Positions 11,754 to 58,379 of a stretch of DNA of 64,000 bases are shown here, one piece after another. The first letter of the stretch is position 1. The number at the start of each line of letters is the position of its first letter. This DNA comes from Rahnella aceris. Lineage in GTDB: Bacteria; Pseudomonadota; Gammaproteobacteria; Enterobacterales; Enterobacteriaceae. Below the pieces are notes generated by a model. That model was given only the letters and a program-made list of their open reading frames with translations. It did no database searches and was not told the DNA's origin. The stretch covers positions 868,001-932,000 of the forward strand of contig NZ_JAADJV010000001.1 of NCBI RefSeq assembly GCF_011684115.1, given 5' to 3'. A program made the translations under genes and the position numbers.

Positions 11754-11933
11754 TATTTGTTACCTGCTTTCTGTAAGGAGAGATAACCGACGGAAAATAA
11801 TTCATGTCTTTAACGGAAAAAAAGATAAACAGCCTGGGAAGTAAAATGGTGCCAAAAGTATTGTGAATAGAACTCAGGTAAACAATTGAGGAAATGAATA
11901 TGCAATTTACGTTTTTTGATTTTGTTTTTTATT

Positions 11934-11949
11934 TGTGAACGGGATCAAA
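11934..11949 (-). promoter_or_regulatory. CRP-like site upstream of the GPH-GH3 operon
   Basis: TGTGA-ACGGGA-TCAAA matches the CRP pattern TGTGA-N6-TCACA with one mismatch in the right half. It lies about 180 bp upstream of the symporter start, in the 284-bp gap (11754-12037) that must hold the operon promoter. Very AT-rich DNA (11880-11935) follows towards the gene. Catabolite control is inferred. Confidence 0.4.
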
Positions 11950-12037
11950 CTGACGGTGGTGTTTGCTTCATCGGCGCGGGGATCCGGACTGGCAAAGGCC
12001 CGCGTTGAGCGGGATGCCATCTCCGGTGAAAGGGGGT

Positions 12038-12940: not shown

Positions 12941-12981
12941 CAGTTTCCTATTGATGAATAAAAGCCAGTAAAGCATGCGAT

Positions 12982-12995
12982 ATAACATGGCTTAT
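12982..12995. promoter_or_regulatory. Candidate LysR-box dyad
   Basis: ATAACATGGCTTAT is a perfect ATAA-N6-TTAT dyad in the gap between the divergent LysR gene and the dehydrogenase, the place where LysR regulators usually bind. Such short dyads are common, so this is only a candidate. Confidence 0.3.
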
Positions 12996-13058
12996 TCACA
13001 ATAATCAATGCGCTTATAGTCAGGCCTCGGTTTGGAAAATTCATCAACGGAGAAAAAT

Positions 13059-13832
13059 ATGTCGCAAACATTACGGTTACAGGGGCGGGTTGCGCTGGTC
13101 ACGGGCGGTGGCTCAGGCATCGGGCGGGCAGCCGCACTGGCGTTTTCACGCGATGGTGCGAAAGTCGTGGTGGCAGGAAGACGGGAAACGGCGCTCCAGG
13201 AAACGGTGATGATGATCCGTGAACGGGGCGGTGATGCCCTGGCGGTGCCGACCGATGTGTCAGACAGCGCACAGGTCCGGCATCTTATTGCCGCGACGCT
13301 GGCGCATTACGGGCGACTGGACGCCGCGTTTAATAATGCGGGTGTGGAAGGTTTTGCGCCAGTCAGTGACATGACAGAAGCGGAATTTGACCGGGTGATT
13401 GCCACCAATCTGAAAGGCGTCTGGCTGTCAGTGAAATATCAGCTGGAAGCCATGACCGCCGCAGGGCGTGGCGGTGCGATTGTGAATACCTCTTCCTGGC
13501 TGGCGCACGGAGCCAGTATTGGCTCTGCTGCGTATTCCGCCAGCAAAGGCGGGCTTGACGCGATGATCCGCGCTATAGCGCTGGAAACCGGTGCGCAGAA
13601 TATCCGCATCAATAACGTTAATCCCGGCATTATCGATACCCCGATGGCGCGGCGGATGGGCGCAAATGAAGAAACGCTGATCCCTTTTGTACGCCTGACA
13701 CCCGCAGGGCGCGTGGGCGAACCGGCAGATGTCGCGGATGTTGTGGCGTGGTTGTGCAGTGATGAAGCGCGATTTGTGACCGGTCAGAATCTGCTGGTCG
13801 ATGGCGGATTTACGGTGGCGGGGCTGCGTTAG
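13059..13832 (+). CDS. Short-chain dehydrogenase/reductase (SDR)
   Basis: A 257-residue classical SDR oxidoreductase. The dinucleotide-binding motif is TGGGSGIGRA near residue 15, followed by NNAG near 92, the catalytic serine in NTSSW near 143, and the Tyr-Lys pair in YSASK near 157-161. It ends LLVDGGFTVAG, usual for cofactor-proximal tails of the glucose/3-oxoacyl dehydrogenase-like group. Start at 13059 follows GGAG; an upstream in-frame ATG at 13032 lacks this. It is divergent from, and probably regulated by, the LysR gene. Substrate unknown. Confidence 0.88.
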   Translation: MSQTLRLQGRVALVTGGGSGIGRAAALAFSRDGAKVVVAGRRETALQETVMMIRERGGDALAVPTDVSDSAQVRHLIAATLAHYGRLDAAFNNAGVEGFAPVSDMTEAEFDRVIATNLKGVWLSVKYQLEAMTAAGRGGAIVNTSSWLAHGASIGSAAYSASKGGLDAMIRAIALETGAQNIRINNVNPGIIDTPMARRMGANEETLIPFVRLTPAGRVGEPADVADVVAWLCSDEARFVTGQNLLVDGGFTVAGLR

Positions 13833-43926: not shown

Positions 43927-44799
43927 TCAGTTATGTTCGTTAAGTAGTTGGGTCAGATACGCGCCATAAGCAGTTTTGCTCATTAATGCAGCTTGTTCAG
44001 CAACACGCTCTTTGCTCAACCATCCTTTACGAAACGCAATCTCTTCCAGACAAGCTACTTTAAAACCTTGTCGTTTCTCAATGGTGTGGACGAATTGTGA
44101 AGCCTCAATCAGGCTATCATGTGTTCCTGTATCGAGCCACGCAAAACCTCGGCCCAGAAGCTCCACCTGCAATTGACCTTTCTCAAGATACATTTCGTTT
44201 AATGTCGTTATCTCAAGCTCACCACGATGAGATGGCTTAACTTGTTTAGCCATTTCAACGATATTTTTGTCATAGAAATAGAGTCCGGTCACTGCCCACT
44301 GAGATTTTGGTTTTAATGGTTTTTCCTCAATGGAAAGTGCTTTAAAGTCCTTATCAAATTCAACCACGCCAAAACGCTCGGGGTCTTGAACCTGATAGCC
44401 GAAGACTGTTGCGCCCGTTTCTCGTTTAGCAACGGCTTCAAGCTGTTTGCCAAAGCTTTGACCAAAATAGATATTGTCGCCAAGAACAAGTGCACAACGT
44501 TCGCCGTTTATAAACTCTTCACCGATGATGAATGCCTGGGCAAGGCCGTCTGGAGATGGCTGTACTGCATACTCGAGTTTAATGCCGAATTGAGAACCAT
44601 CACCCAGTAAGCGTTGAAAGGATGGCATATCTTCAGGGGTAGAAATCACCAATATTTCATTAATACCTGCCAGCATAAGCACAGATATTGGATAATAAAT
44701 CATCGGTTTATCATAAATCGGTAACAGCTGTTTCGATACACCGCGGGTTAGGGGGTACAAGCGTGTGCCTGAACCGCCAGCTAAAACGATACCTTTCAC
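43927..44799 (-). CDS. rmlA: Glucose-1-phosphate thymidylyltransferase
   Basis: A 290-residue RmlA/RfbA that makes dTDP-glucose, the first step to dTDP-L-rhamnose. The nucleotide loop [21 protein letters not shown] (residues about 8-28) is standard, as are DNIYFGQSF near 110 and [14 protein letters not shown] near 220. The start lies 19 bp after the rmlB stop on the same strand, so rmlBA is one unit. Feedback inhibition by dTDP-rhamnose is a family property. Confidence 0.96.
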
Positions 44800-44818
44800 T
44801 AGATTCTTCTCCTTAAAA

Positions 44819-45883
44819 TTAGTTAGTCAAGCCAAGACGTTCACCGGCATAAGAACCATCCTGAACCCGGCGCCACCAATTTTCATTGTTCAGATACCAT
44901 TCAACCGTTTTACGAATTCCGCTTTCGAAAGTTTCTTGTGGTTTCCAGCCTAACTCTTGCTCGATCTTACTGGCATCAATGGCGTAACGCATATCGTGAC
45001 CAGGACGATCTTTCACAAATGTAATCAGTTCGGAGAACTTGGCGATCCCATTTGGTTTTGCGGAAATCAGTTCATCGAGCAACTCACAAATGGTTTTAAC
45101 GACGTCAATATTTTTGCGCTCATTGTGACCACCAATGTTATAGGTTTCGCCTACGACACCCTCGGTAACCACTTTATAAAGTGCACGGGCATGATCTTCA
45201 ACATACAGCCAGTCGCGCACCTGTGCGCCATCACCGTATACCGGTAATGCTTTACCTGAAAGTGCGTTAAGAATGATGAGTGGAATGAGTTTTTCCGGGA
45301 AATGATAAGGACCGTAATTATTCGAACAATTTGTCACAATAGTAGGGAAGCCGTAAGTGCGCTGCCAGGCTCGCACTAAATGATCGCTGGAGGCCTTAGA
45401 TGCAGAGTAGGGACTGCTTGGCGCATACGGCGTCGTTTCAGTGAAAAGATCCGTTGTGCCGTGCAAATCGCCATACACCTCATCCGTTGAAATATGATGG
45501 AAGCGGAAAGCCGATTTTTCCTCTTCAGGCAGAGAAAGCCAAAAATGTCGGGCTGCTTCCAGAAGCACATAAGTGCCAACAATGTTGGTTTCGATGAAGG
45601 CTGCCGGGCCATCAATCGAGCGATCAACATGGCTTTCAGCAGCAAGATGCATAACAGCATCCGGTTGGAAGTCAGTAAAAAGAGTATCCAGTTCTGTGCG
45701 ATCACAAATATTTGCCTGCGCAAACTGATAGCGGGGATCAGATGATACGGGAAGGAGTGACTCAAGATTGCCCGCGTATGTGAGGCTATCGACAACCAGG
45801 ACACTATCCTTTGTATTATCAATAATGTGACGAACAACTGCTGAACCGATGAAACCGGCACCACCGGTGATCAAAATTTTCAT
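44819..45883 (-). CDS. rmlB: dTDP-glucose 4,6-dehydratase
   Basis: A 354-residue extended SDR that catalyses the second step of dTDP-L-rhamnose synthesis. NAD-binding GGAGFIGS near residue 7-14, catalytic Asp-Glu in STDEVYGD near 132-139, Tyr-Lys in YSASK near 158-162. First gene of the leftward rmlBA unit, divergent from rmlCD across a 611-bp gap. Confidence 0.96.
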
Positions 45884-46494
45884 ATATACGTACTCATTTA
45901 TTAAGTGTTAGCTTTTTCACATGCCCAAAAAATCAGCTATTTCGCTTTTGTCGCGAATAAGAACATAGCGTAGCGCAGAGTTAGTGTAAGCGCAGCTATA
46001 ATCAGGTGATTCCTGCATTTTCATGCTAAATATTTCTGCAAGCTATATTTAACTAAAATATATCAACGGTCTGTTTGAAAAGTACCCTGCTGTTGTGGGG
46101 GGCACACACACAAAATCTTCTGCCAGAACTGGACAGGTATCATATTACTTGTGACTCAGGGTTCTTGTAGGAATTGTCCAATTTGCAGCAAAAACTTGGT
46201 TTCAGAGAGGGGGGGCTGTCTCATTATCGGTCACGGTGCTCTGCTGGTCAGTGTATTGCAAATTGCGGATGAGTTTGTAAGCAACGAACCGTATAGTAAA
46301 GATACAGTTAGCCGAGAAATGAACTTTTAGCCAGATTCTGAGTGAGCCGCAATAGGCATTTGTGGTACGATTTTTTAGAAAATGGGAATGGCTGAATGCT
46401 TCATAAATGGAATTTGTAAGAACGGCATCAACAACCGTTTATACAGCAAAGGTAACGTGTCGTTGGATAATTGCATAACGAGTGAGCTATAAAA
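45884..46494. promoter_or_regulatory. Long divergent region between rmlBA and rmlCD
   Basis: A 611-bp gene-free stretch holding the promoters of two opposing rhamnose units. Near 46096-46114 is a run of six Gs followed by a CA repeat, and near 46209-46215 a run of seven Gs. These are candidate slippage tracts but lie outside any gene. No JUMPStart/ops sequence, tRNA or convincing gene is visible. A stop-delimited frame ending at about 46330 lacks a proper start. Confidence 0.5.
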
Positions 46495-47031
46495 ATGAAT
46501 GTTATTGACACAGAAGTTATTGGCGTAAAATTAGTAGAACCTAAAGTTTTCGGTGATGATCGCGGATTCTTTTTGGAAACATTTCAGCAAAATCGCTACA
46601 AGGAAATGTTAGAAATCGATCTGGATTTTGTTCAGGATAACCACTCCCGTTCATCGAAAAACGTTCTTCGTGGCTTACATTTTCAAACGTCTAAACCGCA
46701 GGGCAAGTTGGTTCGTGTTGTCCGTGGTGAAGTATTTGATGTTGTGGTTGATATCCGTCCAGAGTCCGCAACTTTCGGTAAGTGGGTAGGTGTATATCTT
46801 TCGGAAGACAATAAGAATCAGCTGTGGGTACCACCCGGTCTTGCCCATGGCTTTGTGGTGATTTCAGACTTCGCCGATTTTGAGTATAAATGCACTGATT
46901 ACTATGATCCTCGCAATGAAGGATGTTTGATCTGGAACGATCCTGAAGTCGGGGTAAAATGGCCTGTTGAAAGCCCATTACTTTCGGAAAAAGATGGTAA
47001 AGGTAAATCGTTCGGAGAGCTTTTCAAATGA
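46495..47031 (+). CDS. rmlC: dTDP-4-dehydrorhamnose 3,5-epimerase
   Basis: A 178-residue cupin-fold epimerase, third step of dTDP-L-rhamnose synthesis. Catalytic His62 in LRGLHFQ and the Tyr-rich KCTDYYDP near 132-138 are in place. Its stop overlaps the rmlD start by 4 bp (ATGA). Confidence 0.96.
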   Translation: MNVIDTEVIGVKLVEPKVFGDDRGFFLETFQQNRYKEMLEIDLDFVQDNHSRSSKNVLRGLHFQTSKPQGKLVRVVRGEVFDVVVDIRPESATFGKWVGVYLSEDNKNQLWVPPGLAHGFVVISDFADFEYKCTDYYDPRNEGCLIWNDPEVGVKWPVESPLLSEKDGKGKSFGELFK

Positions 47032-47900
47032 GAGTCTTGCTGACGGGAGCAGAGGGGCAACTGGGGCGCTGTTTTAGTGATCGCGCTGGCGAATCATTGG
47101 AAATATTAGCCACTGACAGAAAGCAACTTGATATTACCGACCTTGTTGCAGTTCAAAAAGTTATTGATAGTTTCAAGCCTGATGCCATTGTTAATGCGGC
47201 AGCTTATACCGCTGTAGATAAAGCTGAATCTGATTACGATGCCGCCTTTGCCATTAACTGTCAGGCTGTCAAGAATCTGGCAAGCCAGGCCGGTAAGCTC
47301 AATATTCCTTTCATCCATGTTTCAACGGATTACGTGTTTAATGGTGAAAGTAAAATTGCCTACAGTGAATCAGACAACTGTGACCCTAAAAGTGTCTATG
47401 GGGTGACAAAGCGGGCTGGTGAACTGGAAGTTTTACAATCACCTAAAGGGATTGTGATCCGCACATCGTGGGTATTTAGCGAATATGGTAATAATTTTGT
47501 TAAAACAATGCTTCGCCTCGGCGCTCAACGCGATGCTTTGAGTATTGTCGGTGATCAGTACGGTTGTCCAACTTATGCGGGTGATCTGGCTCAGGCTATT
47601 ATCGAAATACTGTCGATACCTAATTTCAAGCCGGGTTTATATCACTATAGTGGCGATGAAAGCGTTAGCTGGTATCAGTTTGCCCTGAGTATCTTCGCCA
47701 CTGCGCATGCTTCAGGTTCATATCCCCGGATACCGGCATTATCTTCGATTACTACTGAAGAGTATCCAACACCGGCTGCTCGTCCGCGTTATTCAGTCAT
47801 GAATACCAATAAACTGAATGCTGCAGGTATTGCACCAGGAAACTGGAAGAAACAACTGGAAACGATTATCCCTAAAATATTGAATGAAGTCAGTGCATAA
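47028..47900 (+). CDS. rmlD: dTDP-4-dehydrorhamnose reductase
   Basis: A 290-residue reductase that completes dTDP-L-rhamnose. Cofactor motif TGAEGQLG (6-13), VSTDYVFNG near 98-106 and the Tyr124/Lys128 pair in YGVTK. Translationally coupled to rmlC. A 123-bp gap with a small hairpin (47988-48009, ATCCCCT/AGGGGAT) separates it from the first glycosyltransferase gene. Confidence 0.96.
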   Translation: MRVLLTGAEGQLGRCFSDRAGESLEILATDRKQLDITDLVAVQKVIDSFKPDAIVNAAAYTAVDKAESDYDAAFAINCQAVKNLASQAGKLNIPFIHVSTDYVFNGESKIAYSESDNCDPKSVYGVTKRAGELEVLQSPKGIVIRTSWVFSEYGNNFVKTMLRLGAQRDALSIVGDQYGCPTYAGDLAQAIIEILSIPNFKPGLYHYSGDESVSWYQFALSIFATAHASGSYPRIPALSSITTEEYPTPAARPRYSVMNTNKLNAAGIAPGNWKKQLETIIPKILNEVSA

Positions 47901-48023
47901 ACGTCGGACGGGTAATTGAGGTTGGTTCAGCCTGCCTCAATTAAATATCAGTGTTAAAAATCATTTCTGTTTTTGATTGAATATAAAATCCCCTCACATA
48001 TCAGGGGATAGGAAGTGTAAATC

Positions 48024-48857
48024 ATGGTTGCTGACTTAGTGAAATCAGACGTCATTGCCTCGATCGTCTTATTCAATCATACCTATGCCCAGATTGAGCG
48101 TACTATCAATTCTCTGCTTCGTGAGCCGCAGATAGCCAAGATTGTATTAGTTGACAATGGTGGTTGCGGCTGGGCATTTTCCCTTAACAATCCGCGTATT
48201 ATAGTTCTTAAATCCAACAAAAACTGTGGCTTTGGCCACGGGCATAACCAGGCAATGGCGGAGTTTCTACCTCAGTGTGAGTACTTTTTAATCTGTAATC
48301 CCGACGTATATTTTAATGAGGGCGTTGTTTCTTATTTATTGGAAGAGTGCCGTTGTCATGGCTACAAATTTGTTTCTCCTCCAATCCGTTATTCAGATGG
48401 CTCCAAGCAATATAGCTGTAAACTCTTGCCGACTCCGCTGAATCTCTTTTTAAGACGTTTCATGCCGTCGTTAGCGAAGAAAATGGATCAGCGATATGAA
48501 ATACAAGATGCCGATTTTAGCAGGAACTTTTCTGTCCCTTCGGTTTCGGGTTGTTTTATGCTAATTTCTTCTGATTTATTAATAAAGCTCAAAGGTTTTG
48601 ACGAAAGGTACTTTATGTATCTTGAAGATGTTGATCTATGTCGACGAGCGCTGGACCATACTGAAATAATGTATTGTTCAGGTAAAGAAATCATTCATGA
48701 GTTTGGTAAGGGGTCATACAAAAATACATCTTTATTAATGTGTCATATTAAATCTTCGATCCTTTATTTTAATAAATGGGGTTGGATTTTTGACAGGAAA
48801 AGAAAAGAAGTCAATAAAACTTGCCTGTCCGCGCTCCCGGTGTGTACAAAGAAATGA
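48024..48857 (+). CDS. Family 2 glycosyltransferase, WbbL-like (probable rhamnosyltransferase)
   Basis: A 277-residue GT-A fold enzyme. The N-terminal nucleotide-sugar region (ASIVLFNHTY, VDNGG, then CGFGHGHNQAM near 72-82) and the acidic metal site CNPDV near 95 resemble E. coli WbbL. So do the acceptor-domain YLEDVDLCRRA near 205. From memory, WbbL adds rhamnose to GlcNAc on the lipid carrier. A similar adaptor role is inferred, supported by the rml genes just upstream. AT-rich compared with the core genes. Confidence 0.82.
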   Translation: MVADLVKSDVIASIVLFNHTYAQIERTINSLLREPQIAKIVLVDNGGCGWAFSLNNPRIIVLKSNKNCGFGHGHNQAMAEFLPQCEYFLICNPDVYFNEGVVSYLLEECRCHGYKFVSPPIRYSDGSKQYSCKLLPTPLNLFLRRFMPSLAKKMDQRYEIQDADFSRNFSVPSVSGCFMLISSDLLIKLKGFDERYFMYLEDVDLCRRALDHTEIMYCSGKEIIHEFGKGSYKNTSLLMCHIKSSILYFNKWGWIFDRKRKEVNKTCLSALPVCTKK

Positions 48858-48907
48858 GTCACGTCATACCTGACGGTTTTGGTTGCTGGGAAATAGGGAA
48901 GTGATGC

Positions 48908-49804
48908 ATGTTGTGTGAAAAAATAAAACCGGCTGCCGTTATTGTCTCTTATCAACCGATAATTAATGACCTCATGCATCTCATTGATTCACTCAAAAGA
49001 CAGGGTGTCGAATCTATCGTCGTGGATAATGGCAGTCTGGGCCGTGAAAAATTTGCAAACTTACGCGAGATTTGCGTCTTTATTGAGCTTGAAAAAAACC
49101 TTGGGATTGCGGCAGCACAAAATATAGGTATCAGAAAGGCAGAAGAAAAGGGCGCTGAGTACATCGTATTCTTTGATCAGGACAGTAAAATTGATGAGAA
49201 TTACATCCGAGCGCTGACACAAGATTTTTTGAGAGTCAGACAATATGACTCCAAAATAGCGACTATAGGACCAGTGTTTACGGATTCCAGGCATGGTTTT
49301 TACTATAAAGTTATTGATATTAATCGGTTTGGTTTACGTAAAAAAATAAATCCTGAAAATTATAGTGCCCCTTTTGCAACATCACTGATTATTTCGTCAG
49401 GGTCAATGATACCTATCGACGCTATACGTCAGATAGGCTATATGAATGAATCACTTTTTATTGATTATGTCGATACGGAATGGTGTTTGAGAGCAACTAG
49501 CCAAGGATACACTATTTATGTAGGGACCTCTGCCCGTATGACACATTCTATTGGCGATAAGATCGTTAGATTTTTCATGTTCAATATTCCCGTACATTCG
49601 CCATTCAGAAGATATTATCGTGTACGTAATGCTTTCTTTTTGTTACGAATGAAGCATGTACCTAAACTGATGGTCGTTCGTGAGTTTATTTTCAATTTTA
49701 TACATCAGGTTATTTTGATTCTTACCCAAAAGAGTAAAAAGAGAGAATACCTACATAGCTTTTTACGAGCTATTAAAGATGGTTTCTTAAATCGCAGACA
49801 TTGA
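48908..49804 (+). CDS. Family 2 glycosyltransferase, RfbF-like rhamnosyltransferase
   Basis: A 298-residue GT-A enzyme similar to RfbF-type dTDP-rhamnosyltransferases. It shows AAVIVSYQP near 10, VDNGS near 40, the metal site FFDQDSKID near 91, and the IDYVDTEWCLRA catalytic segment near 187. The C-terminal third is basic and amphipathic (FRRYYRVRNAFFLL), suited to membrane association. Last gene of the rightward unit. It meets the big multidomain gene convergently across a perfect terminator palindrome. Confidence 0.85.
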   Translation: MLCEKIKPAAVIVSYQPIINDLMHLIDSLKRQGVESIVVDNGSLGREKFANLREICVFIELEKNLGIAAAQNIGIRKAEEKGAEYIVFFDQDSKIDENYIRALTQDFLRVRQYDSKIATIGPVFTDSRHGFYYKVIDINRFGLRKKINPENYSAPFATSLIISSGSMIPIDAIRQIGYMNESLFIDYVDTEWCLRATSQGYTIYVGTSARMTHSIGDKIVRFFMFNIPVHSPFRRYYRVRNAFFLLRMKHVPKLMVVREFIFNFIHQVILILTQKSKKREYLHSFLRAIKDGFLNRRH

Positions 49805-49824
49805 CGTGTATTACTTATTCAAAT

Positions 49825-49857
49825 GATAAAGCCAACAATTGTTGGCTTTATCTGTTT
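49825..49857. terminator. Bidirectional terminator between converging polysaccharide genes
   Basis: A perfect 28-nt palindrome (49825-49852, arms GATAAAGCCAACAA / TTGTTGGCTTTATC) followed by TGTTTT. It ends both the rightward glycosyltransferase unit and the leftward exporter/polymerase unit. Confidence 0.88.
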
Positions 49858-49873
49858 TAAATGCTAGATAAAC

Positions 49874-52800
49874 TTAGTCAGGAATTTTAGTGCTTAATAT
49901 TTTATCAAAAATATGCTGTAATTCGACTGCTTGTTGTTCAAAGGTAGTAATTGTATTGCTCGGCAATACAACTTCACCTTGCGCATAGCGCTCTGAATAG
50001 ATAGCAACTGTTTTATTAATGGCTGCATATAGAGCTTCACCTTTATCCTGAAGAGGTATGATAAAACCATTTTCCCCCTCAATAATGTCTTCAGTCACAC
50101 CACCAGCATCCGTGACGATGACCCAGACATTACGGATTAACGCTTCTCTAACCGTTAGGCCAAAACTTTCCTTCCATTGAGTAGGGAAAAGTAATACATC
50201 AATATTGGAGAAGAAATCGTCAATATTTTGCTGAGTATATCCAGGAACAAGAATAGTATTGTCGAAGAAATCAAGCTCAGACTCCGTGAAAGAGGAATAC
50301 CCAAGATTTGTTGTATTATCGACAATGCTAAGGCTGATGTCTTTATCTGAAAGCTTAGTGAATGCCTTGCGGATAAGGTGGAAACCTTTAACTTCAGTAT
50401 TACCGCCAACGTAGCCAAATCTTAGTGTGTTACCTGAGCGTACATGCTTGGTGCTTTTAGGCTTCAGGATGCCATTTTTATTAATAATGACATCTTTAAA
50501 GCCATTGGCAATATGGAAATCGGCAAAATATTTGCTTGGTGATAATATGGCTGCTGCTGCATTGAGAGTTCCTCTTACCCGCGAATCCCTAAGGAAATTG
50601 AAATGCTTATTAGCAATGTTTCCAGTCTCACGCTCAGCATCAATCATCGCCTGACCGACATAAACGCCATTTGTGTCAATCATAAACTGGTTTGTGCTGA
50701 GCCACCATGCGTCATGAAGGGTAACAACATATGGAACATTAAATTGATTACATATGTCTAACATGCTGACACCCATTCCCTGAATACAATGGAAATGAAC
50801 AATATCTGGTTTAGTGACCTTTACAATATCTTCAAATACCGACGTGATATTTAGGTTATCAAAGCTTTCTCTTGAGCTTAAATTATCCGGAATGCCAATG
50901 CCAAATGCATTCATTCCATCAGTTTCATAGCGCTTACATTGGTACGATGCTACGTCGCGGTCAGAAAATGCAGTGACCACATGTACAATTGTTCCGTTAT
51001 TACGAAGCTCTTTGTTAATTTCCTGAGCAACTATCGTTGCACCACCGAATGAACGTGGGGAATAATAACAGTTCACGGAAAGAATTGTTTGTCGTCTTTT
51101 TTCACTAAAAATATGGTCAATAAAAGGTTGAACTTGATCTTGTGCAATACTCACTGGTGAATAGTGAGACATTACATTTTGATAGGCTCTTTCACCTATT
51201 TCAATACGTTTTTGTTTATCTTCAATTAATGAACTGAATGCCATGATCCATTCAGATTCACTGTTGCAAAGATAACCATTTTTTTCATGCATGATGGCCT
51301 GAGTAAATGCAGAGCGCGGTGAACATATTGATGGTATATGAAGTGATGAGGCTTCAATATATTTGATATTGCTTTTTGAATCGTTGAAAATATAATTTTC
51401 CAGTGGTGCAATACTGATATCGCATTCAGAGAGTAGCACCAAATACTCTTCATATGTACAGGTAGGGAAAAATTCTACCTGTGAGATATGTTTTGATAAA
51501 TAATCGGGTAAATCCAGTTGACCGATCACTCTAAATTTCACATTAGGATATTTTGCCAAAATTACTGCAATAGCCGGTGCCGCTTCTTCAAAATCAATAT
51601 TATGTGTATTAGTTCCTGAACCGTAAACTATACGTACATATTCATCTGACTTAGTTGAACTTATTGCTGAATTATTGATCTCATCGGCCGTCACCATAGT
51701 TTGGTGATCAAGCGCATTTTCGATGATTACAACATCTTTTACTCCGGCTTCCTGCATTGCTTTTGCCAGGCCGGGAGTCGAGGCGATACCACCATCGCAG
51801 GCCAACATAGTGCTCCGATAAAGTGTTGCACCATTGATGAGATCTTTTAAAACAGTAGGATCAAGGCCCTGAAGCGTTTTACTGTTTCTCAGTATCTCTT
51901 CATCAAAAATTAGGTCATCAACGTCCCAGTAAGTCTTAATGTTCAGTCTCTTCGCTTCGGCAATCACATGCATGACACTTTCGAAGCCTGGAACTCGGTA
52001 GAAAATGACCACGGAATGCCGCTGTAATGCTTCGAAAGCCCCGGCGATATCATTCCAGTCTAGAATATTGCACTCATATCCTCTTTGGCGGAACATTTCT
52101 TGTTTTTGAAGTACACGATATTTTTTGCATTGAGGAATACTGAGTTCCCCAATGATTAGTACCCGCGGCACTAAAATCTTTTCGGCGGGTAACGTGATCT
52201 GTTCTTTTAAAATAGGGTAAGTCGGGTGAATAAAGTTTTCAGAGGGCAGGTGATGCGCAACTGAGCGTAAGCGTCTGCGGATCCCCATAAGTCCATCTCG
52301 GCGATAAACTCCGACTGCTTTTCTGAATGTGCTGGATACGCCGCCACCTCGTTTAATAGATGGACCAATTAGACGAGAAAGTAATTTTGCTCTGCGCAGG
52401 CTAATGAAGAACCAACGAATAGGCTTGGTTATCTTCCAGCTTTTCGATTTCCAGATTTCATTAATTTGTTTTTCTAAATCAATGACTCGGCTTTCGAGTT
52501 GAGATGCACGGTTTTGTAAATGGCTCGTCGTTGAATTGGCCTTGTCGAGTAAATGATGCAAATCCACATTATCAGCCAGGACTTGCATACATTTTTCCTG
52601 AACCTTACTGTTCTCTGCTTTGAGCTGTTCTAATTCATGCAGGCTCTGCTCATGCTCTGTTGTCAGACTGGCTAAGCTTTCGTTCATCTCAAGCCACTGG
52701 GCAGCAGGAGAATGCAGCATGGTAGACCAGATATTGTCATTCTGAGGGGGGGAGTTAAGAAGAGTTTTGTGGTAGTTCTTGTTACCCACAACAACGGACT

Positions 52801-53509
52801 CTTCCTCCCCGGCAATGTATCGCTCACCCAGAATGTTCTGTTCATGTTCTTTTTTGCGGATGACGCAGATAGAGTTTATAAATTCGACAGAATGAATTTT
52901 TGATAAAATTTCGTCATCGATTTCAACTTGATAGTGCTCTTTAAATTCATCAAGTACGCTTCCGGATGCTTTATCAACTCCCCAGTGCTCATGATTGATG
53001 ATATCGACAAGTCTTTTGAAGAACGAAATGGAAGAATAGGGATGGTAGATACCCCCTTCGTAATTCTCCCAGTAACTACAATGCAGGTCCTCAGCAATAA
53101 ACACACCGCCATTCCTAATGGTGCCGAAATATTTACAAAAGGCACGAATAATATCAGGTGATGTATGCGAGCCATCATCGATAACAATATCGAGTTCAGG
53201 TTGGAAATTGATAATTTTTTTACTGGTGCTCTCGGAGGTGGCGTCTCCCACAAAAACGCTAATGCGAGGATCGGTATATTCTAAATTTCCGCATAACTCG
53301 TCGATATCACAACCAATAATTTTTTCAGCATGAGGGAAATAGTTTGACCAGGCTTCAAGAGATCCGCCGTTCTGAACACCAATCTCAAGCATGGTGACTG
53401 CTTTATTACGATAGGGAGCCATGATGTTATCGTAAGCATCAAAATAAATATTCCATTTATCTGAAATTTTACCTGTGCTTTCTTCGTACAAATCGTAAAG
53501 TTTTTTCAT
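49874..53509 (-). CDS. Methyltransferase-coiled coil-GT4-GT4 multidomain enzyme (WsaE-like)
   Basis: A 1211-residue protein with four parts. Residues about 1-220 form a CmcI/rhamnosyl-O-methyltransferase-type SAM domain (MLEIGVQNGGS near 40-50, IDDGSHTSPDI near 110-120, GGVFIAEDLH near 134-143). Residues about 275-355 are heptad-like and charged, a probable coiled coil. Residues about 445-800 are one GT-B glycosyltransferase, and about 808-1205 a second one of family GT4 (LLFPTQWKESFGL near 1106-1118). It resembles the trifunctional WsaE rhamnan enzyme of Geobacillus as I recall it. Probable role: build and methyl-cap a rhamnose polymer. Its start overlaps the wzt stop. Confidence 0.82.
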   Translation of the reverse strand: MKKLYDLYEESTGKISDKWNIYFDAYDNIMAPYRNKAVTMLEIGVQNGGSLEAWSNYFPHAEKIIGCDIDELCGNLEYTDPRISVFVGDATSESTSKKIINFQPELDIVIDDGSHTSPDIIRAFCKYFGTIRNGGVFIAEDLHCSYWENYEGGIYHPYSSISFFKRLVDIINHEHWGVDKASGSVLDEFKEHYQVEIDDEILSKIHSVEFINSICVIRKKEHEQNILGERYIAGEEESVVVGNKNYHKTLLNSPPQNDNIWSTMLHSPAAQWLEMNESLASLTTEHEQSLHELEQLKAENSKVQEKCMQVLADNVDLHHLLDKANSTTSHLQNRASQLESRVIDLEKQINEIWKSKSWKITKPIRWFFISLRRAKLLSRLIGPSIKRGGGVSSTFRKAVGVYRRDGLMGIRRRLRSVAHHLPSENFIHPTYPILKEQITLPAEKILVPRVLIIGELSIPQCKKYRVLQKQEMFRQRGYECNILDWNDIAGAFEALQRHSVVIFYRVPGFESVMHVIAEAKRLNIKTYWDVDDLIFDEEILRNSKTLQGLDPTVLKDLINGATLYRSTMLACDGGIASTPGLAKAMQEAGVKDVVIIENALDHQTMVTADEINNSAISSTKSDEYVRIVYGSGTNTHNIDFEEAAPAIAVILAKYPNVKFRVIGQLDLPDYLSKHISQVEFFPTCTYEEYLVLLSECDISIAPLENYIFNDSKSNIKYIEASSLHIPSICSPRSAFTQAIMHEKNGYLCNSESEWIMAFSSLIEDKQKRIEIGERAYQNVMSHYSPVSIAQDQVQPFIDHIFSEKRRQTILSVNCYYSPRSFGGATIVAQEINKELRNNGTIVHVVTAFSDRDVASYQCKRYETDGMNAFGIGIPDNLSSRESFDNLNITSVFEDIVKVTKPDIVHFHCIQGMGVSMLDICNQFNVPYVVTLHDAWWLSTNQFMIDTNGVYVGQAMIDAERETGNIANKHFNFLRDSRVRGTLNAAAAILSPSKYFADFHIANGFKDVIINKNGILKPKSTKHVRSGNTLRFGYVGGNTEVKGFHLIRKAFTKLSDKDISLSIVDNTTNLGYSSFTESELDFFDNTILVPGYTQQNIDDFFSNIDVLLFPTQWKESFGLTVREALIRNVWVIVTDAGGVTEDIIEGENGFIIPLQDKGEALYAAINKTVAIYSERYAQGEVVLPSNTITTFEQQAVELQHIFDKILSTKIPD

Positions 53510-54897
53510 ACTATGGCTCTCAGATCAACTTTTGAAAAATTAATACCAACCAGTCCCCAGCGAACTTTGCTTGAAGAGACATTTATAATAAGGGCATCAT
53601 GCAGGAAATGGTGCTGAACATGATCGTGAATATCACCATTAGCAAGTGATGCCATGACGACATATTGACCGTTAGGCAGCATGGGGAGTTTAAATTTAAA
53701 TTCTCCCTCAATATTCTGCCCAGGTTCAATTTCTTTTGGATGTAAGTTGGTGAAAGGGAGAGTATTCTCACCAAATAAATCCTGACCTAATCTGTCTTTG
53801 ACAATAAAACCCAGAATAGGGCGGTCAAAATGGGTTTCAACTTTGGCTTTGATCACCAACTTGACTGATTCTCCACCCTGATACACCGTTTTCGTTTCAT
53901 TGTTATAAGTGGTCAGTTCGACAGCGGTAATCTCTCCGGCACCACTTTTCCAGCCATTCGCTTGACTCAGATTATCCGTAACCTTAATTTTACTTTCGTA
54001 ATCGAGAAGTATTGGCTCATTAGCTTCGAAGGCTTCGTCAAGAGCCTGGTTGGCATTTCCGGTCGATTCCGCTAATGCCTGGAGTTTGGCATCCTCACCG
54101 TAGACTTCCTGCAATGTGTACTGCAGGTAATCTTCTGCGATTTCTTTGGCTGATCCCGTTTTTACTAAATCACCTTTATGAAGCCATACGGCATCCTGAC
54201 AAAGATTCAGTACCGAGTTCATGTCGTGGCTGACAAAAATCAGTGTACCCGTTTCTTTAAATTTACGAATAAAACGCATACATTTTTGCGTAAATACTGC
54301 ATCACCAACGGCAAGTGCTTCATCAATAACCAGGATGTCAGCATCCACATGCGCAATGACAGCAAACGCAAGTCGTACATACATTCCGCTTGAATAATTT
54401 TTGACTGGCTGATCGATATGCTCGCCAATATCTGCAAATGTTTCAATTAAATGGAATCGTTTCGTCACTTCTTCACGACTTAAGCCATAGAGCGAGGCCG
54501 CCATGTAGACGTTGTCACGCCCGGTAAATTCGGGGTTAAAACCTGCCCCCAATTCTAAAAGGGCAGCGACCTTGCCCTGAACAGTGACATTACCAACCGT
54601 TGGGTTTAATGTTCCACAAATCATCTGAAGGAGTGTGGATTTACCTGAACCATTGCGGCCAATAATCCCTACAGTTTCCCCTTTGCGTACTTTAAAGGAA
54701 ACATCCCGTAATGCCCAAAATTCTCTAAAGAAGTTTTTGCGACCACGAAAAAATATTTGTAGGAGGCGATCCCGGGGTTTTTCATAAATTTGATAACATT
54801 TCCCCAGACCTTCGACACTAATAGCAATTTCTTCTGTGCGGACATCAATATCTGCAGCCTTAACGTCTATCGAAGAATCGATGGAATTACAAGACAT
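53506..54897 (-). CDS. wzt: O-polysaccharide ABC exporter ATPase with C-terminal glycan-binding domain
   Basis: A 463-residue Wzt. Residues about 25-275 are the ATP-binding cassette (Walker A GRNGSGKST 80-88, signature YSSGMYVRLAFA near 170, Walker B LVIDEAL near 190). Residues about 310-463 are an extra beta-sandwich domain of the type that, in E. coli O9a, recognises the capped chain end before export. Start ATG 54897 after AAGGGG; it overlaps the permease gene by 11 bp. Overlap with the multidomain gene suggests coordinated capping and export. Confidence 0.93.
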   Translation of the reverse strand: MSCNSIDSSIDVKAADIDVRTEEIAISVEGLGKCYQIYEKPRDRLLQIFFRGRKNFFREFWALRDVSFKVRKGETVGIIGRNGSGKSTLLQMICGTLNPTVGNVTVQGKVAALLELGAGFNPEFTGRDNVYMAASLYGLSREEVTKRFHLIETFADIGEHIDQPVKNYSSGMYVRLAFAVIAHVDADILVIDEALAVGDAVFTQKCMRFIRKFKETGTLIFVSHDMNSVLNLCQDAVWLHKGDLVKTGSAKEIAEDYLQYTLQEVYGEDAKLQALAESTGNANQALDEAFEANEPILLDYESKIKVTDNLSQANGWKSGAGEITAVELTTYNNETKTVYQGGESVKLVIKAKVETHFDRPILGFIVKDRLGQDLFGENTLPFTNLHPKEIEPGQNIEGEFKFKLPMLPNGQYVVMASLANGDIHDHVQHHFLHDALIINVSSSKVRWGLVGINFSKVDLRAIV

Positions 54898-55705
54898 CGG
54901 CAAACCCCTTTCTTGTTTTTTGGAACCATGCAAAACCGAGCCAGGCTACCAGGCTACAAGCTGCAAAATAAATGCAGAAAGAACTGATCTTTGGGATCCC
55001 ACCGAAGTACAGAACGTCGCGCATTTCAGCGATAGCGGGTGCCAGCGGATTCATCTTCAATAAAGGACGATAATGTTCCGGCAATGCTTCAATAGGGAAG
55101 AAAATTGGCGATAAAAACATCAGGACTGTCGTCAGTACCGCAACAAGTTGTGAAACGTCGCGTAAATAAACACCCAGGGATGCCAGAGCCCAGCTCACAC
55201 CAACAGAAAGCAGAACTAATGGAATAATTGTTATCGGGAGTAACAGAATAGTTAAATGCGGAACTCCGACGACGAAAATGTAGAAGATGACCCAGACGAT
55301 GATGCTGATCATTGCATGAAATAGTGCTGAACCGACCGACACCCAAGGAAGGATTTCTAAAGGGAAAACAACTTTTTTAACATAGTTAGCATTAGCAAGT
55401 ACCAGACCCGGCGCACGATTGAAACAGTCTGCAAATAAATTGAAAACTATTAGCCCTGCAAACAGTATAAGTGCAAATTCTGTTTTTGACTGACCACCAC
55501 CTGCCCATCTCGCATTAAATACGACACTAAAAACGAAGGTATAAACGGCCAGCATAAATACAGGGTTAAAAAACGACCAAAGTATACCCAGCATTGAGCC
55601 TTTATATCGCCCAACAACTTCCCTTTTGACCAGGTTATAAATTAATGCTCGGTTGCGTACAGCGCTTGCCACGAATTCTCGGGGGGACGCGTTGAAAGAT
55701 TGCAT
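54887..55705 (-). CDS. wzm: O-polysaccharide ABC exporter permease
   Basis: A 272-residue ABC-2 type permease with six hydrophobic segments and the family's amphipathic N-terminal region (LVKREVVGRYKGSMLGILWSFFNPVF, about 27-52). The C-terminal PLLKMNPLAPAIAEMRDVL near 222-240 is typical for O-antigen and teichoic acid exporters. First gene of the leftward wzm-wzt-multidomain unit. With Wzt it moves the finished lipid-linked polymer across the inner membrane. Confidence 0.93.
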   Translation of the reverse strand: MQSFNASPREFVASAVRNRALIYNLVKREVVGRYKGSMLGILWSFFNPVFMLAVYTFVFSVVFNARWAGGGQSKTEFALILFAGLIVFNLFADCFNRAPGLVLANANYVKKVVFPLEILPWVSVGSALFHAMISIIVWVIFYIFVVGVPHLTILLLPITIIPLVLLSVGVSWALASLGVYLRDVSQLVAVLTTVLMFLSPIFFPIEALPEHYRPLLKMNPLAPAIAEMRDVLYFGGIPKISSFCIYFAACSLVAWLGFAWFQKTRKGFADVL

Positions 55706-56208
55706 TAGGCAACTACCTCATAACTCATAAAAACCTCATTATGCTTCTACTATAGGGGGTCTTAATAGACAACACTTTACCCTTAGCCGGTAATTTTAAC
55801 CCCAAAGTTGGGCTAAAGGATACATGCCTTATGTTGGTTTATCCCCTCAGATAAATCTAACTTGTCGCAGCCCCAATTGGAGGAGGTAACTTTATATGCC
55901 AATCGTACAGAAACGCTGCTCTAAGCGGCTTGATAGAGGCAACAAAACTTTCGCTGTCACTTTAGCTCTTTTTTACCTGCATTCCCCACATGTTACCGGT
56001 AAAGTAAAGCTGGCCTCTGAGAAGGGCGAAGCAGGGGATTGCTGGCATGTGCGATCAGAATATTGTTATGGCTGCAATAGGTTCACCCTTCGCCATTCTC
56101 ATGTACAATGCTTGTGTTCATTTGTATGGCTCAGTGCAGTTAAACTCACTGTTTACAGGGGTTTAGACTAAAAACTGGGCGATCAACTATTTCAGACAGG
56201 AGTTGCTA
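55706..56208. promoter_or_regulatory. wzm/gnd divergent region
   Basis: A 503-bp gap. It contains a local inverted repeat (CCCTTAGCC near 55790 with GGGCTAAAGG near 55810-55820) and a very strong ribosome-site-like GGAGGAGGTAAC at 55878-55889 leading into a 91-codon frame listed separately. The gnd promoter and leader should be in the right-hand half. No JUMPStart element found on either strand. Confidence 0.4.
55896..56171 (+). CDS. Doubtful 91-codon open frame
   Basis: An open frame ([15 protein letters not shown] start) preceded by a near-perfect Shine-Dalgarno sequence at 7 nt. The peptide is cysteine-rich in its second half ([16 protein letters not shown]) and matches no family I know. 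The composition looks like chance translation. The good ribosome site is the only positive evidence; it may instead belong to an RNA element in the gnd leader. Confidence 0.2.
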
Positions 56209-57618
56209 ATGTCCAAACAACAGATCGGCGTTGTCGGTATGGCGGTCATGGGCCGTAACCTCGCGCTTAACATTGAAAGCCGTGGTTATTCCGTTTCCAT
56301 TTTTAACCGTTCAGGCGACAAGACTGATGAAGTCATCGCTGAAAATCCGGGTAAAAATCTGGTTCCGCACTACACCGTCGAAGAGTTTGTTGACTCGCTG
56401 GAAAAACCTCGTCGTATCTTGCTGATGGTGAAAGCCGGTGAAGCAACTGATAAAACCATCGCATCCCTGACTCCGCACCTGGATAAAGGCGACATCCTGA
56501 TCGATGGCGGTAACACCTATTACAAAGACACCATTCGCCGTAACCGCGAACTGTCCGAGCAAGGTTTCAACTTCATCGGTACCGGCGTTTCCGGCGGTGA
56601 AGAGGGCGCACTGAAAGGCCCGTCTATCATGCCTGGCGGTCAGAAAGAAGCCTACGCGCTGGTAGCACCTATTCTTGAAAAAATCGCAGCCCGCGCTGAG
56701 GATGGCGACGCTTGTGTGGCTTACATCGGTGCAGATGGTGCCGGTCACTACGTCAAAATGGTTCACAACGGTATCGAATACGGCGACATGCAGCTGATCG
56801 CAGAAGCGTATTCTCTGCTGAAGCAGTCCCTGAACCTGAGCAACGAAGAGCTGGCGACCACCTTTGCTGACTGGAACAAAGGCGAGCTGAGCAGCTACCT
56901 GATCGACATCACCAAAGACATCTTCACTAAGAAAGACGAAGAAGGTAAATACCTGGTCGATGTGATCCTGGATGAAGCAGCGAACAAGGGCACCGGTAAA
57001 TGGACCAGCCAGAGCTCACTGGATCTGGGCGAACCACTGACGCTGATCACCGAGTCTGTGTTTGCCCGTTACTTGTCTTCCCTGAAAGACCAGCGTGTTG
57101 CGGCTTCTAAAGTACTGTCCGGCCCGGCGGTGAAACCTTTCTCTGGCGACAAAGCGGAGTTCATCGAGAAAGTGCGTCGTGCTCTGTATCTGGGCAAACT
57201 CGTTTCTTACGCGCAAGGCTTCTCACAGCTGAAAGCCGCATCAGATGAGAACAACTGGGATCTGAACTACGGTGAAATCGCGAAGATTTTCCGTGCGGGT
57301 TGTATTATTCGTGCACAGTTCCTGCAGAAAATTACCGATGCGTATGCTGAAAATGCCTCTATCGCTAACCTGCTGCTGGCTCCGTACTTCAAAAACATTG
57401 CTGATGAATATCAGCAAGCGCTGCGTGATGTCGTGTCTTATGCCGTTCAGAACGGTATCCCGACGCCAACCTTCTCTGCTGCGATCAACTACTACGACAG
57501 CTACCGTTCTGCGGTTCTGCCCGCCAACCTGATCCAGGCACAGCGTGACTACTTCGGTGCGCATACTTACAAACGTACCGACAAAGATGGCGTATTCCAT
57601 ACCGAATGGTTGGATTAA
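56209..57618 (+). CDS. gnd: 6-phosphogluconate dehydrogenase, decarboxylating
   Basis: A 469-residue enzyme of the oxidative pentose phosphate pathway making ribulose-5-phosphate and NADPH. Cofactor motif [11 protein letters not shown] near 9-19, substrate-binding SGGEEGA near 128-134 and HNGIEYGD near 186-193 are intact; the C-terminus ends VFHTEWLD. Start ATG 56209 follows AGGAG by 7 nt. It marks the edge of the polysaccharide locus as in other enterobacteria; ugd and wzz, which follow it in E. coli, are absent. Confidence 0.97.
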
Positions 57619-57625
57619 TTGCCTG

Positions 57626-57650
57626 ACCGGCACGTGTTAAGCGTGCCGGT
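57626..57650 (+). repeat. GC-rich stem-loop after gnd
   Basis: ACCGGCACG (57626-57634) pairs with CGTGCCGGT (57642-57650), 7-nt loop, 7 nt past the gnd stop. Probably part of the transcript-end structure upstream of the main terminator. Confidence 0.6.
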
Positions 57651-57666
57651 GTTGTCACGTCGAGAC

Positions 57667-57706
57667 AAAAAAAGCCGCCAATGCATCAGCAAAGGCGGCT
57701 TTTTTA
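57667..57706. terminator. Bidirectional terminator between gnd and hisI
   Basis: AAAAAAGCCGCC (ending at 57679) pairs with GGCGGCTTTTTT (57694-57705) around a 14-nt loop. It serves gnd and the converging his operon. Confidence 0.88.
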
Positions 57707-57737
57707 CGTCTGAACTTTTACTTTTGAATTTTCGACG

Positions 57738-58375
57738 TTATTTCTTATGACGCTGACGCAGATTCTCAATGACCGCACTCAGGTTCAGATCCTGATCCTG
57801 CAGCAATACCAGCAGGTGATAAATGAGATCTGAGGCTTCGTTTTTCAGTTCAAAGCGGTCGTTGACGGTGGCGGCCAGCGCAGTTTCAACGCCTTCTTCA
57901 CCGACTTTTTGTGCGATGCGTTTGGTACCGCTGGCGTAAAGTTTGGCGGTATACGAGCTTTCCGGATCGGCGGTTTTGCGCGAGGCGAGCAGTTCTTCGA
58001 GCTGATACAGAAACGCCCAGTCGGTTTCAGCAGGGTGGAAGCAGCTGTTATTGCCTTTATGGCAGGTCGGGCCAACCGGATTGACCAACACCAGCAGCGT
58101 GTCGTTATCGCAATCCGGGGTGATGCTGACGACGTTCAGATAGTTTTCTGACGTTTCGCCTTTGGTCCACAGACGCTCTTTGGTGCGTGAATAAAACGTT
58201 ACCTTGCCGGAAGACTGCGTAACGCCCAGTGCTTCCTGATTCATATATCCGAGCATCAGCACTTCACCCGACACCGCGTGCTGGATGATGGCTGGCATCA
58301 GGTTATCCACTTTTTCCCAGTCGAGCTGGCTAATCTGTTCATCGGTCAGCAGACCGGTTTTTACATCCTGATTAC

Positions 58376-58379
<4 letters not shown>
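57738..58379 (-). CDS. hisI: Phosphoribosyl-AMP cyclohydrolase / phosphoribosyl-ATP diphosphatase
   Basis: A 213-residue bifunctional HisIE enzyme, steps two and three of histidine synthesis. The N-terminal cyclohydrolase (about 1-115) has the metal ligands in CDND and CHKGNNSCF near 90-115. The C-terminal helical diphosphatase (about 120-210) carries [15 protein letters not shown]. Last gene of the his operon; its start overlaps the hisF stop by 4 bp. Confidence 0.96.

What the first reader, a model, noticed from the sequence alone, without database searches (positions are those of the whole stretch)
48024..55705. Possible self-contained methyl-capped rhamnan O-polysaccharide system
Seen: all four rml genes, two rhamnosyltransferase-like GT2 enzymes, Wzm/Wzt with a C-terminal glycan-binding domain, and a single protein joining a CmcI/rhamnosyl-O-methyltransferase domain, a coiled-coil stretch and two glycosyltransferases. 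No other sugar-nucleotide gene, Wzx, Wzy or Wzz is in the locus. Known: in E. coli O9a a methyl/phosphate cap added by WbdD, whose coiled coil acts as a ruler, is recognised by the Wzt C-domain. In Geobacillus, WsaE combines methylation and rhamnosyl transfer. Inference: WecA starts, the WbbL-like and RfbF-like enzymes add adaptor rhamnoses, and the large protein polymerises and caps. Its own coiled coil may measure length, fusing polymerase, terminator and ruler in one chain.
Basis: partly seen in the sequence, partly recalled or inferred. Interest (0 to 1): 0.72.

Follow-up and report, generated by a model that had tools for sequence, protein, structure and literature searches.

The report
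Methyl-capped O-antigen enzyme with built-in ruler
One protein in this bacterium appears to build a surface sugar chain, measure it with a rod-shaped helix and stop it with a methyl cap; single-chain machines of this kind are known, but this combination of parts looks uncharacterised, and relatives' rods mostly differ in length by exact seven-residue steps.

Summary
Between galF and gnd lie rmlABCD, two GT2 genes, wzm, wzt (with Wzt_C domain) and a 1211-residue protein: N-terminal methyltransferase, one long helix, two C-terminal glycosyltransferases. The methyltransferase is a Mg-type deoxysugar O-methyltransferase (MycE/SpnK fold, key residues kept) without room for a kinase, so a plain O-methyl cap on a 6-deoxyhexose is the best reading. 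The glycosyltransferases are GT-B/GT4. All 7 named-genome loci found with the same head also have wzm-wzt, and the Wzt cap-binding domain tracks head type in the loci compared, with one counter-example. Fusing polymerase, terminator and ruler is not new (Klebsiella O12 WbbB, O7 ORF6; Geobacillus WsaE for cap plus polymerase). The head-polymerase combination is a new variant, biochemically untested. My own addition: coil length in relatives changes in whole heptads (58 of 70 tree-independent differences are multiples of 7; 1 of 41 in the adjacent control span), over 34 to 209 residues and with GT4 or GT2 polymerases, so the head is held in fixed register on a ruler of variable length. A pure rhamnan is plausible but unproven; a rhamnose heteropolymer fits the genes too.

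The parts
43927..44799 (-). rmlA, glucose-1-phosphate thymidylyltransferase
   Evidence: TIGR01207 516 bits
44819..45883 (-). rmlB, dTDP-glucose 4,6-dehydratase
   Evidence: TIGR01181 517 bits
46495..47031 (+). rmlC, dTDP-4-dehydrorhamnose 3,5-epimerase
   Evidence: TIGR01221 258 bits
47028..47900 (+). rmlD, dTDP-4-dehydrorhamnose reductase
   Evidence: TIGR01214 316 bits
48024..48857 (+). GT2 glycosyltransferase, candidate adaptor enzyme (WbbL-like not shown)
   Evidence: PF00535 and a weaker GT2 model only; no NCBIfam match; homologues in L026 and L039, 2 of 7 loci with the same head
48908..49804 (+). GT2 rhamnosyltransferase (RfbF-like), candidate adaptor enzyme
   Evidence: TIGR01556 257 bits, cutoff 200.55; homologues in 5 of 7 loci with the same head
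49825..49852 (.). 12-pair inverted repeat between the two convergent gene ends, candidate two-way terminator
   Evidence: sequence; terminator scan as a whole 15 found against 11.4 (sd 3.5) in shuffles
49874..53509 (-). 1211-aa polymerase-ruler-terminator protein
52850..53509 (-). residues 1-220: Mg-type deoxysugar O-methyltransferase head (MycE/SpnK fold)
52448..52708 (-). residues 268-354: continuous helix, coiled-coil ruler
52250..52426 (-). residues 362-420: two helices after the S-x-S-W motif, candidate membrane-proximal base
   Evidence: AF2 helices 362-387 and 391-420; membrane role inferred from WbdD
51110..52192 (-). residues about 440-800: first GT-B/GT4 glycosyltransferase module
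49877..51097 (-). residues about 805-1211: second GT-B/GT4 module with E-x7-E (E1114, E1122) invariant in 59 of 59
53506..54933 (-). wzt, ABC transporter ATPase (first possible start; the true start may lie further in)
53545..53961 (-). Wzt C-terminal cap-binding domain
   Evidence: PF14524; related to A. aeolicus CBD 8dky
54887..55705 (-). wzm, ABC transporter membrane subunit
   Evidence: PF01061 95 bits

Best explanation
The locus makes a rhamnose-containing O-polysaccharide by the ABC-transporter route. dTDP-L-rhamnose comes from RmlABCD. The chain starts on a lipid-linked primer (WecA, inferred), the two GT2 enzymes add the adaptor sugars (inferred), and the two GT4 modules at the base of the 1211-residue protein polymerise the repeat. 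The MycE/SpnK-like head sits about 12-13 nm away on an in-register coiled coil and O-methylates (2- or 3-OH) the non-reducing rhamnose once the chain reaches it, which stops growth. The Wzt C-domain reads that cap and admits the chain to Wzm for export. Shown here: gene content, folds, kept catalytic residues, no kinase domain, coil, heptad quantisation in relatives, tracking of Wzt-C with head type in the loci compared. Inferred: the sugar identities, the methyl position, termination, length control, cap reading, membrane attachment.
For: Head: PDB profile hits MycE 5e-28 and 8ia9 (SpnK) 7e-21; Foldseek ranks 1-12 are MycE or SpnK chains, E 4e-14 to 1e-10. The MycE-family residues Asp275, His278, Asp304 (PMC9275233 passages) map to D112, H115, D141 (alignment; numbering offset inferred); H115 and D141 are invariant in 59 of 59 and D112 in 55 of 59. 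No kinase: the head columns span 254-261 aa in all 59 and the coil follows. Coil; heptad register. Cap reading: all 7 of the 80 kept loci that carry this head also have wzm and wzt; in 6 they lie directly upstream of the GT4-type protein, and in L025 a second methyltransferase-headed protein lies between. Wzt-C is 53-65% identical in these 7, against 38% (L027, L028) and 42% (L047) with other methyltransferase heads, 24% (L040) with a sulfotransferase-like head, and no C-domain in L043, where no head was recognised. Wzt-C is related to the A. aeolicus domain that binds a 3-O-methyl sugar (E 8.5e-7; PMC9445017 section 9): its Asn313 and His355 positions are kept and its Trp362 position is W in six of the seven relatives and F here. 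The own genome has one Wzt_C match, and WecA-family and ligase-family genes.
Against: No chemistry: no sugar, linkage or methyl analysis for this strain was found in what I searched. L033 has a methyltransferase-like head and a short Wzt without C-domain, so such a head does not always go with Wzt-C. The A. aeolicus His350 position, which touches the cap, is A here. Four of 59 relatives (P0052-P0055) carry D111S and D112N. Tyr208 of the MycE family falls in an alignment gap. WsaE methylated independently of chain length in vitro (PMC2943079 passages). The AF2 head-plus-coil model is of moderate confidence (pLDDT 77, pTM 0.57).
Confidence: 0.68

Rival explanations
1. Same machine, but the polymer is a heteropolysaccharide of rhamnose plus a household sugar (GlcNAc, Glc or Gal), as in Klebsiella O12, with one GT4 module using a UDP-sugar.
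For: Among the GT4 modules' nearest solved relatives are UDP-sugar enzymes (BshA and others), which says little at this distance; O12 is a GlcNAc-rhamnose polymer (PMC5320592 passage). The two GT modules are not detectably similar to each other by BLASTP, so two different reactions are likely.
Against: Only rhamnose genes are local, and the methyltransferase fits a 6-deoxyhexose terminus. Neither excludes this rival.
Confidence: 0.28
2. The head methylates the chain but does not control length or export (decoration, as the O1 pyruvyl group); length is set by the transporter to polymerase ratio.
For: [quoted passage not shown] Klebsiella O1 has a non-regulating terminal group (PMC11231755 passages); L033 has a methyltransferase-like head but no Wzt-C.
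Against: Wzt-C is present here and tracks head type in most loci compared; the coil keeps register over a wide range of lengths, which a mere tether would not need.
Confidence: 0.15
3. Heptad steps are only a by-product of DNA slippage in repeats that encode coil, with no constraint on register.
For: Some relatives show 14-residue tandem repeats in the coil (for example P0108, P0066; seen by eye).
Against: The window's coil DNA has no direct repeat of 12 bases or more, yet two near relatives differ from it by exactly 7 residues; register is the same in GT4 proteins and in the rest of the discovery set (40 of 46 and 45 of 49); the adjacent span does not follow it (1 of 41).
Confidence: 0.15

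Closest known systems
Klebsiella pneumoniae O7 ORF6 (PMC11231755)
   Same: N-terminal methyltransferase, coiled coil, two C-terminal rhamnosyltransferase modules in one chain; wzm, wzt and rml genes; ABC-type export
   Different: O7 has a kinase domain (methyl-phosphate cap), a CBM-like fold and GT2 modules, plus a separate ribofuranosyltransferase; here no kinase and GT4 modules
Klebsiella O12 / Raoultella WbbB
   Same: Polymerase, terminator and coiled-coil ruler in a single chain (PMC11231755); that its locus too has only rml sugar genes is recalled
   Different: WbbB caps with beta-Kdo (GT99) and uses GT102/GT103 modules
Geobacillus stearothermophilus WsaE (PMC2943079 passages)
   Same: N-terminal methyltransferase giving a 2-O-methyl cap on L-rhamnan, two GT modules in the same chain, wzm-wzt-wsaE gene order
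   Different: WsaE serves an S-layer glycan in a Gram-positive, makes alpha-1,2 and alpha-1,3 linkages (GT2 class recalled) and works with WsaF; here GT4 modules. WsaE itself was not fetched, so its coil was not tested
E. coli O8 / Klebsiella O5 WbdD
   Same: Methyl-only cap by a coiled-coil terminator, capped chain read by the transporter
   Different: Separate polymerase WbdA; mannan
MycE, SpnK, ThnM1 sugar O-methyltransferases
   Same: Head fold and metal/catalytic residues
   Different: Those are free-standing natural-product enzymes
Aquifex aeolicus Wzt CBD (PMC9445017)
   Same: Homologous cap-binding domain; recognises 3-O-methyl sugar
   Different: Pocket residues only partly kept here; D-sugar polymer

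Membership tests
ABC-transporter-dependent, cap-terminated O-polysaccharide systems | wzm and wzt in the locus, no wzx/wzy | tested here: met
ABC-transporter-dependent, cap-terminated O-polysaccharide systems | Wzt carries a C-terminal carbohydrate-binding domain | tested here: met
   PF14524 108 bits
ABC-transporter-dependent, cap-terminated O-polysaccharide systems | terminator enzyme with extended coiled coil | tested here: met
ABC-transporter-dependent, cap-terminated O-polysaccharide systems | only capped chains exported | not testable with these tools
   needs mutants and LPS analysis
WbbB / O7-ORF6 type single-chain polymerase-terminators | terminator head, coil and two GT modules in one chain | tested here: met
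Klebsiella O7 ORF6 in particular | kinase domain of about 223 aa between methyltransferase and coil | tested here: not met
   head columns span 254-261 aa in 59 of 59, helix from 268
WsaE family | N-terminal sugar O-methyltransferase | tested here: inconclusive
   head and coil are 39-45% identical over 28-37% of the query to the GT2-bearing proteins P0082-P0116; identity to WsaE itself not tested
WsaE family | two GT2 rhamnosyltransferase modules (class recalled) | tested here: not met
   GT-B/GT4 modules
MycE/SpnK metal-dependent sugar O-methyltransferases | fold | tested here: met
   Foldseek ranks 1-12
MycE/SpnK metal-dependent sugar O-methyltransferases | Asp275, His278, Asp304 | tested here: met
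   D112, H115, D141
MycE/SpnK metal-dependent sugar O-methyltransferases | Tyr208 | tested here: inconclusive
   falls in an alignment gap
rhamnan O-antigens | polymer of rhamnose only | not testable with these tools
   rml genes are the only local sugar genes; heteropolymer not excluded

The most novel reading that the evidence does not exclude
The methyltransferase-coil-base module is a portable, indexed ruler. Natural coils are cut in whole heptads so that the cap head keeps one rotational register relative to the membrane base whatever the length, and bacteria retune O-chain length by gaining or losing single heptads (about 1 nm) while swapping polymerases (GT4-GT4, GT2-GT2) below and cap heads above. 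The window protein is the 97-residue setting of that series; near relatives sit one heptad up (104) and one down (90).
Probability: 0.5. Interest if true: 0.72.

Novelty: new variant of a known kind. Interest (0 to 1): 0.52.

Why it matters
Length control of ABC-exported glycans by a coil has been shown in a few systems (E. coli O9a, Klebsiella O12). For WsaE it was left open because methylation did not depend on length in vitro and an additional factor was suspected (PMC2943079 passages). If the coil is that factor, nature already supplies a graded set of rulers differing by exact heptads with the same head and polymerase type, so the ruler model can be tested by comparing strains. The modular head, coil and polymerase grammar also lets cap chemistry be guessed from genome sequence together with the Wzt C-domain.

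Tried and rejected
Rejected: a hidden kinase as in Klebsiella O7 (no room). Rejected: a GT2 polymerase as in O7 and (recalled) WsaE. Rejected as novelty: 'polymerase, terminator and ruler in one chain' (WbbB, O7 ORF6).

Led nowhere: genome-contig scan with the single protein (none confirmed). Family genomes: 121 of 392 genomes, the own one included, had a match, but apart from the own genome the best covers residues 500-788 at 28% and none listed covers the whole protein; as a rule two candidates per genome were scored. E. coli genomes: 1197 of 5426 had a partial match, 0 covered 80% of the locus, the best row 15%. Sigma-70 promoter scan 27 against 29 expected. ops-like element with one mismatch: 4 against 3.3 expected, none inside the locus. 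K. oxytoca and E. cloacae papers (E. cloacae O23 has wzm/wzt but its other genes were not in the passages). First anchoring of the heptad test took a wrong upstream anchor for several rows, the window included (71 of 89 on one class), and was replaced. First anchoring for the second head type caught only 10 of 113; a looser one caught 48. Whether WsaE, WbdD, WbbB or O7 ORF6 follow the heptad rule was not tested.
Full report
WHAT IS THERE. Between galF and gnd the ORF list (100 aa or more) holds nine genes besides shadow frames: rmlA and rmlB on the minus strand, rmlC, rmlD and two GT2 genes on the plus strand, then a 1211-residue protein, wzt and wzm on the minus strand. As called from the first possible starts, wzm and wzt overlap by 47 bases and wzt and the big gene by 4. 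The two strands converge with a 12-pair inverted repeat between the gene ends (49825-49852). gnd is followed directly by the his genes, so no ugd or wzzB was seen there. The whole genome (5.23 Mb, 10 contigs) has one copy of the big protein, one Wzt_C match, three Wzz-family matches, all on other contigs, three WecA/MraY-family genes and two Wzy_C/ligase-family genes.

THE BIG PROTEIN. (a) Head, residues 1-220. Profile search of solved structures gives MycE (5e-28) and 8ia9 (7e-21), then, further down, CmcI (2e-7); Foldseek with the AlphaFold2 model gives MycE and SpnK chains as ranks 1-12 (TM-scores by target length 0.45-0.49, only part of the target being matched). MycE-family enzymes bind Mg through two aspartates and methylate a deoxysugar hydroxyl; ThnM1 methylates the 2-OH of L-rhamnose (PMC9275233, passages). 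That SpnK methylates the 3-OH of rhamnose is recalled; the reference list of that paper names a study of SpnH, SpnI and SpnK on permethylated rhamnose. Asp275, His278 and Asp304 map to D112, H115, D141 by the alignment, with a 20-residue tag offset that I inferred; Tyr208 falls in a gap. In 59 full-architecture sequences (the window and 58 relatives, 39-90% identical; alignment A1) H115, E140 and D141 are invariant and D112 is kept in 55; the four others are P0052-P0055. (b) Ruler, residues 268-354: one unbroken helix in the model, block-mean pLDDT 71-95. (c) A motif S-x-S-W followed by helices 362-387 and 391-420. (d) Two GT-B modules, model pLDDT 90, pTM 0.86; Foldseek finds a capsule multienzyme (8qoy) and GT4-like GT-B enzymes. 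The second module has the E-x7-E pair (E1114, E1122) in 59 of 59. The two modules do not resemble each other by BLASTP.

RELATIVES AND MODULARITY. A profile scan of named genomes found 304 stretches that encode a relative and kept the best 80. By tblastn with window proteins (E 1e-5) 7 of these 80 loci carry the same head (L021-L026, L039: Thiothrix, Rhodoferax, two Pseudomonas, Candidimonas, Pantoea, Enterobacter). All 7 have wzm and wzt hits; in 6 these lie directly upstream of the GT4-type protein, and in L025 a second methyltransferase-headed protein with GT2 modules stands between; 5 of 7 have all four rml genes. The other 73 loci matched with the GT4 pair but not with this head. I listed ORFs for 17 of the 80 loci, scanned big proteins of 7 with Pfam and compared Wzt of 14. 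Other heads on the same GT4 pair: Methyltransf_24 (L027, L033), Methyltransf_11 (L047), Sulfotransfer_3 (L040, E 1.7e-6), none recognised (L043, L088). Wzt nucleotide-binding domains are 35-75% identical to the window's. Wzt C-domains are 53-65% identical with the same head (7 loci), 38% (L027, L028) and 42% (L047) with other methyltransferases, 24% with the sulfotransferase head (L040), not detectable in L056 (head not determined) and missing in L043. Counter-example: L033 has a Methyltransf_24 head and a 250-aa Wzt without C-domain. Cap and reader therefore go together in most, not all, of the loci compared.

CAP READING. The Wzt C-domain matches the A. aeolicus domain (8dky, E 8.5e-7) and 2r5o (8e-5; that this is the E. 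coli O9a domain is recalled). In A. aeolicus Asn313, His350, the trap loop with His355, and a hydrophobic pocket with Trp362 hold the 3-O-methyl sugar (PMC9445017, abstract and sections 9 and 12). In the window the Asn313 and His355 positions are kept, Trp362 is F (W in L021, L023-L026, L039; Y in L022) and His350 is A. So the site is of the same kind but may be tuned to another sugar or position.

In A1 the head columns span 254-261 aa while the stretch from head to first GT varies from 121 to 238. Measured from the conserved W after the head (N-x-W, window W261) to the W of S-x-S-W (window W358), the window distance is 97. In the discovery set (121 proteins: the 120 listed plus the window) 95 could be anchored and 85 of these fall on 6 modulo 7. 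In a held-out set of 103 further proteins 85 could be anchored and 62 fall on 6 modulo 7; of the 23 others 18 fall on 3 modulo 7, and 17 of these 18 share the base motif W-[RK]-[AV]-T-[AS]-G, so they look like one group that differs by a single four-residue stutter. In-register distances run from 34 to 209 residues (147 of 180 anchored). The rule holds for GT4-GT4 proteins (40 of 46) and for the rest of the discovery set (45 of 49), much of which bears GT2 modules. Core residues L, I, V, M, F occupy 77% and 51% of two coil positions and 10-16% of the other five (86 representatives). On a FastTree tree of the head alone, 70 non-overlapping pairs differ in coil length and 58 of the differences are multiples of 7 (1/7 taken as expectation; binomial p 2e-37). 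The same procedure on the next span, from S-x-S-W to the first GT anchor (142 proteins), gives 41 differing pairs and 1 multiple of 7. A simpler similarity-based pairing gave 53 of 65 against 1 of 33 and 0 of 4. For another head type (proteins listed for query L027) 48 of 113 could be anchored; 24 fall on one class and 12 on another, and 11 of 20 pairs differ by multiples of 7 (p 2e-5), so the effect is weaker there. Near relatives of the window sit at 97 (P0001, P0002), 104 (P0003) and 90 (P0004); the window's coil DNA has no direct repeats. Rows that could not be anchored (26 of 121, 18 of 103, 65 of 113) were left out, so the rule is a statement about proteins that carry both motifs.

WHAT IS KNOWN. 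Kelly and others (PMC11231755; abstract, section 10, part 1 of sections 11 and 13, passages) show that Klebsiella O7 ORF6 joins methyltransferase, kinase, coil and two rhamnosyltransferase modules, and describe O12 WbbB as polymerase plus terminator in one enzyme. The WbdD coil is an established ruler that holds the head about 20 nm away (PMC5082667 passages; PMC3482155 passages). WsaE joins a 2-O-methyl cap domain with two rhamnosyltransferases; its methylation was length-independent in vitro (PMC2943079 passages). On heptad steps in these rulers: one search listed one paper holding both WbdD and heptad, the coiled-coil review PMC5082667, whose passages report insertions and truncations in WbdD but no natural heptad steps; one search counted 34 papers with at least 3 of 4 terms, of which 20 listings were seen. 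The 2015 ruler paper is not held, so I cannot say the point is unpublished.

VERDICT. A well-supported, uncharacterised variant of a known kind: kinase-free MycE/SpnK-type methyl head plus GT4 polymerase on one ruler. The heptad-indexed ruler is the part a specialist may find surprising.

Noticed in passing
L040:8933-12769; also P0256, P0263: Same coil and GT4-GT4 base with a sulfotransferase-like head (Sulfotransfer_3, E 1.7e-6, in L040; P0256 and P0263 begin with a similar G-M-H-R-S-G-T motif by eye but have no Pfam head match at 0.001): candidate sulfate-capping terminators.
   Followed up: partly
L025:6892-9894 and 10001-13612: Candidimonas humi has two methyltransferase-headed proteins side by side, one with GT2 modules and one with GT4 modules, behind one wzm-wzt.
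   Followed up: no
L033:8332-12655: Burkholderia pseudomultivorans: methyltransferase-like head but a short Wzt without cap-binding domain; the Burkholderiales loci L034, L035, L037, L038 gave weak Wzt hits and L036 none.
   Followed up: partly
P0052-P0055: Four relatives carry D111S and D112N at the metal site; the head may be inactive or altered.
   Followed up: no
window 56203-58379: gnd is followed directly by the his genes; ugd and wzzB, often found there (recalled), were not seen.
   Followed up: partly
window 43927-55705: Genes are split into inverted blocks, whereas in L026 and L039 rml, wzm, wzt, big gene and GT2 genes run in one direction.
   Followed up: partly
G000:C2:54235-88436: Two further Wzz-family matches in open frames of 721 and 739 aa and a WecA-family gene (C2:56848) suggest separate capsule or exopolysaccharide loci.
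   Followed up: no
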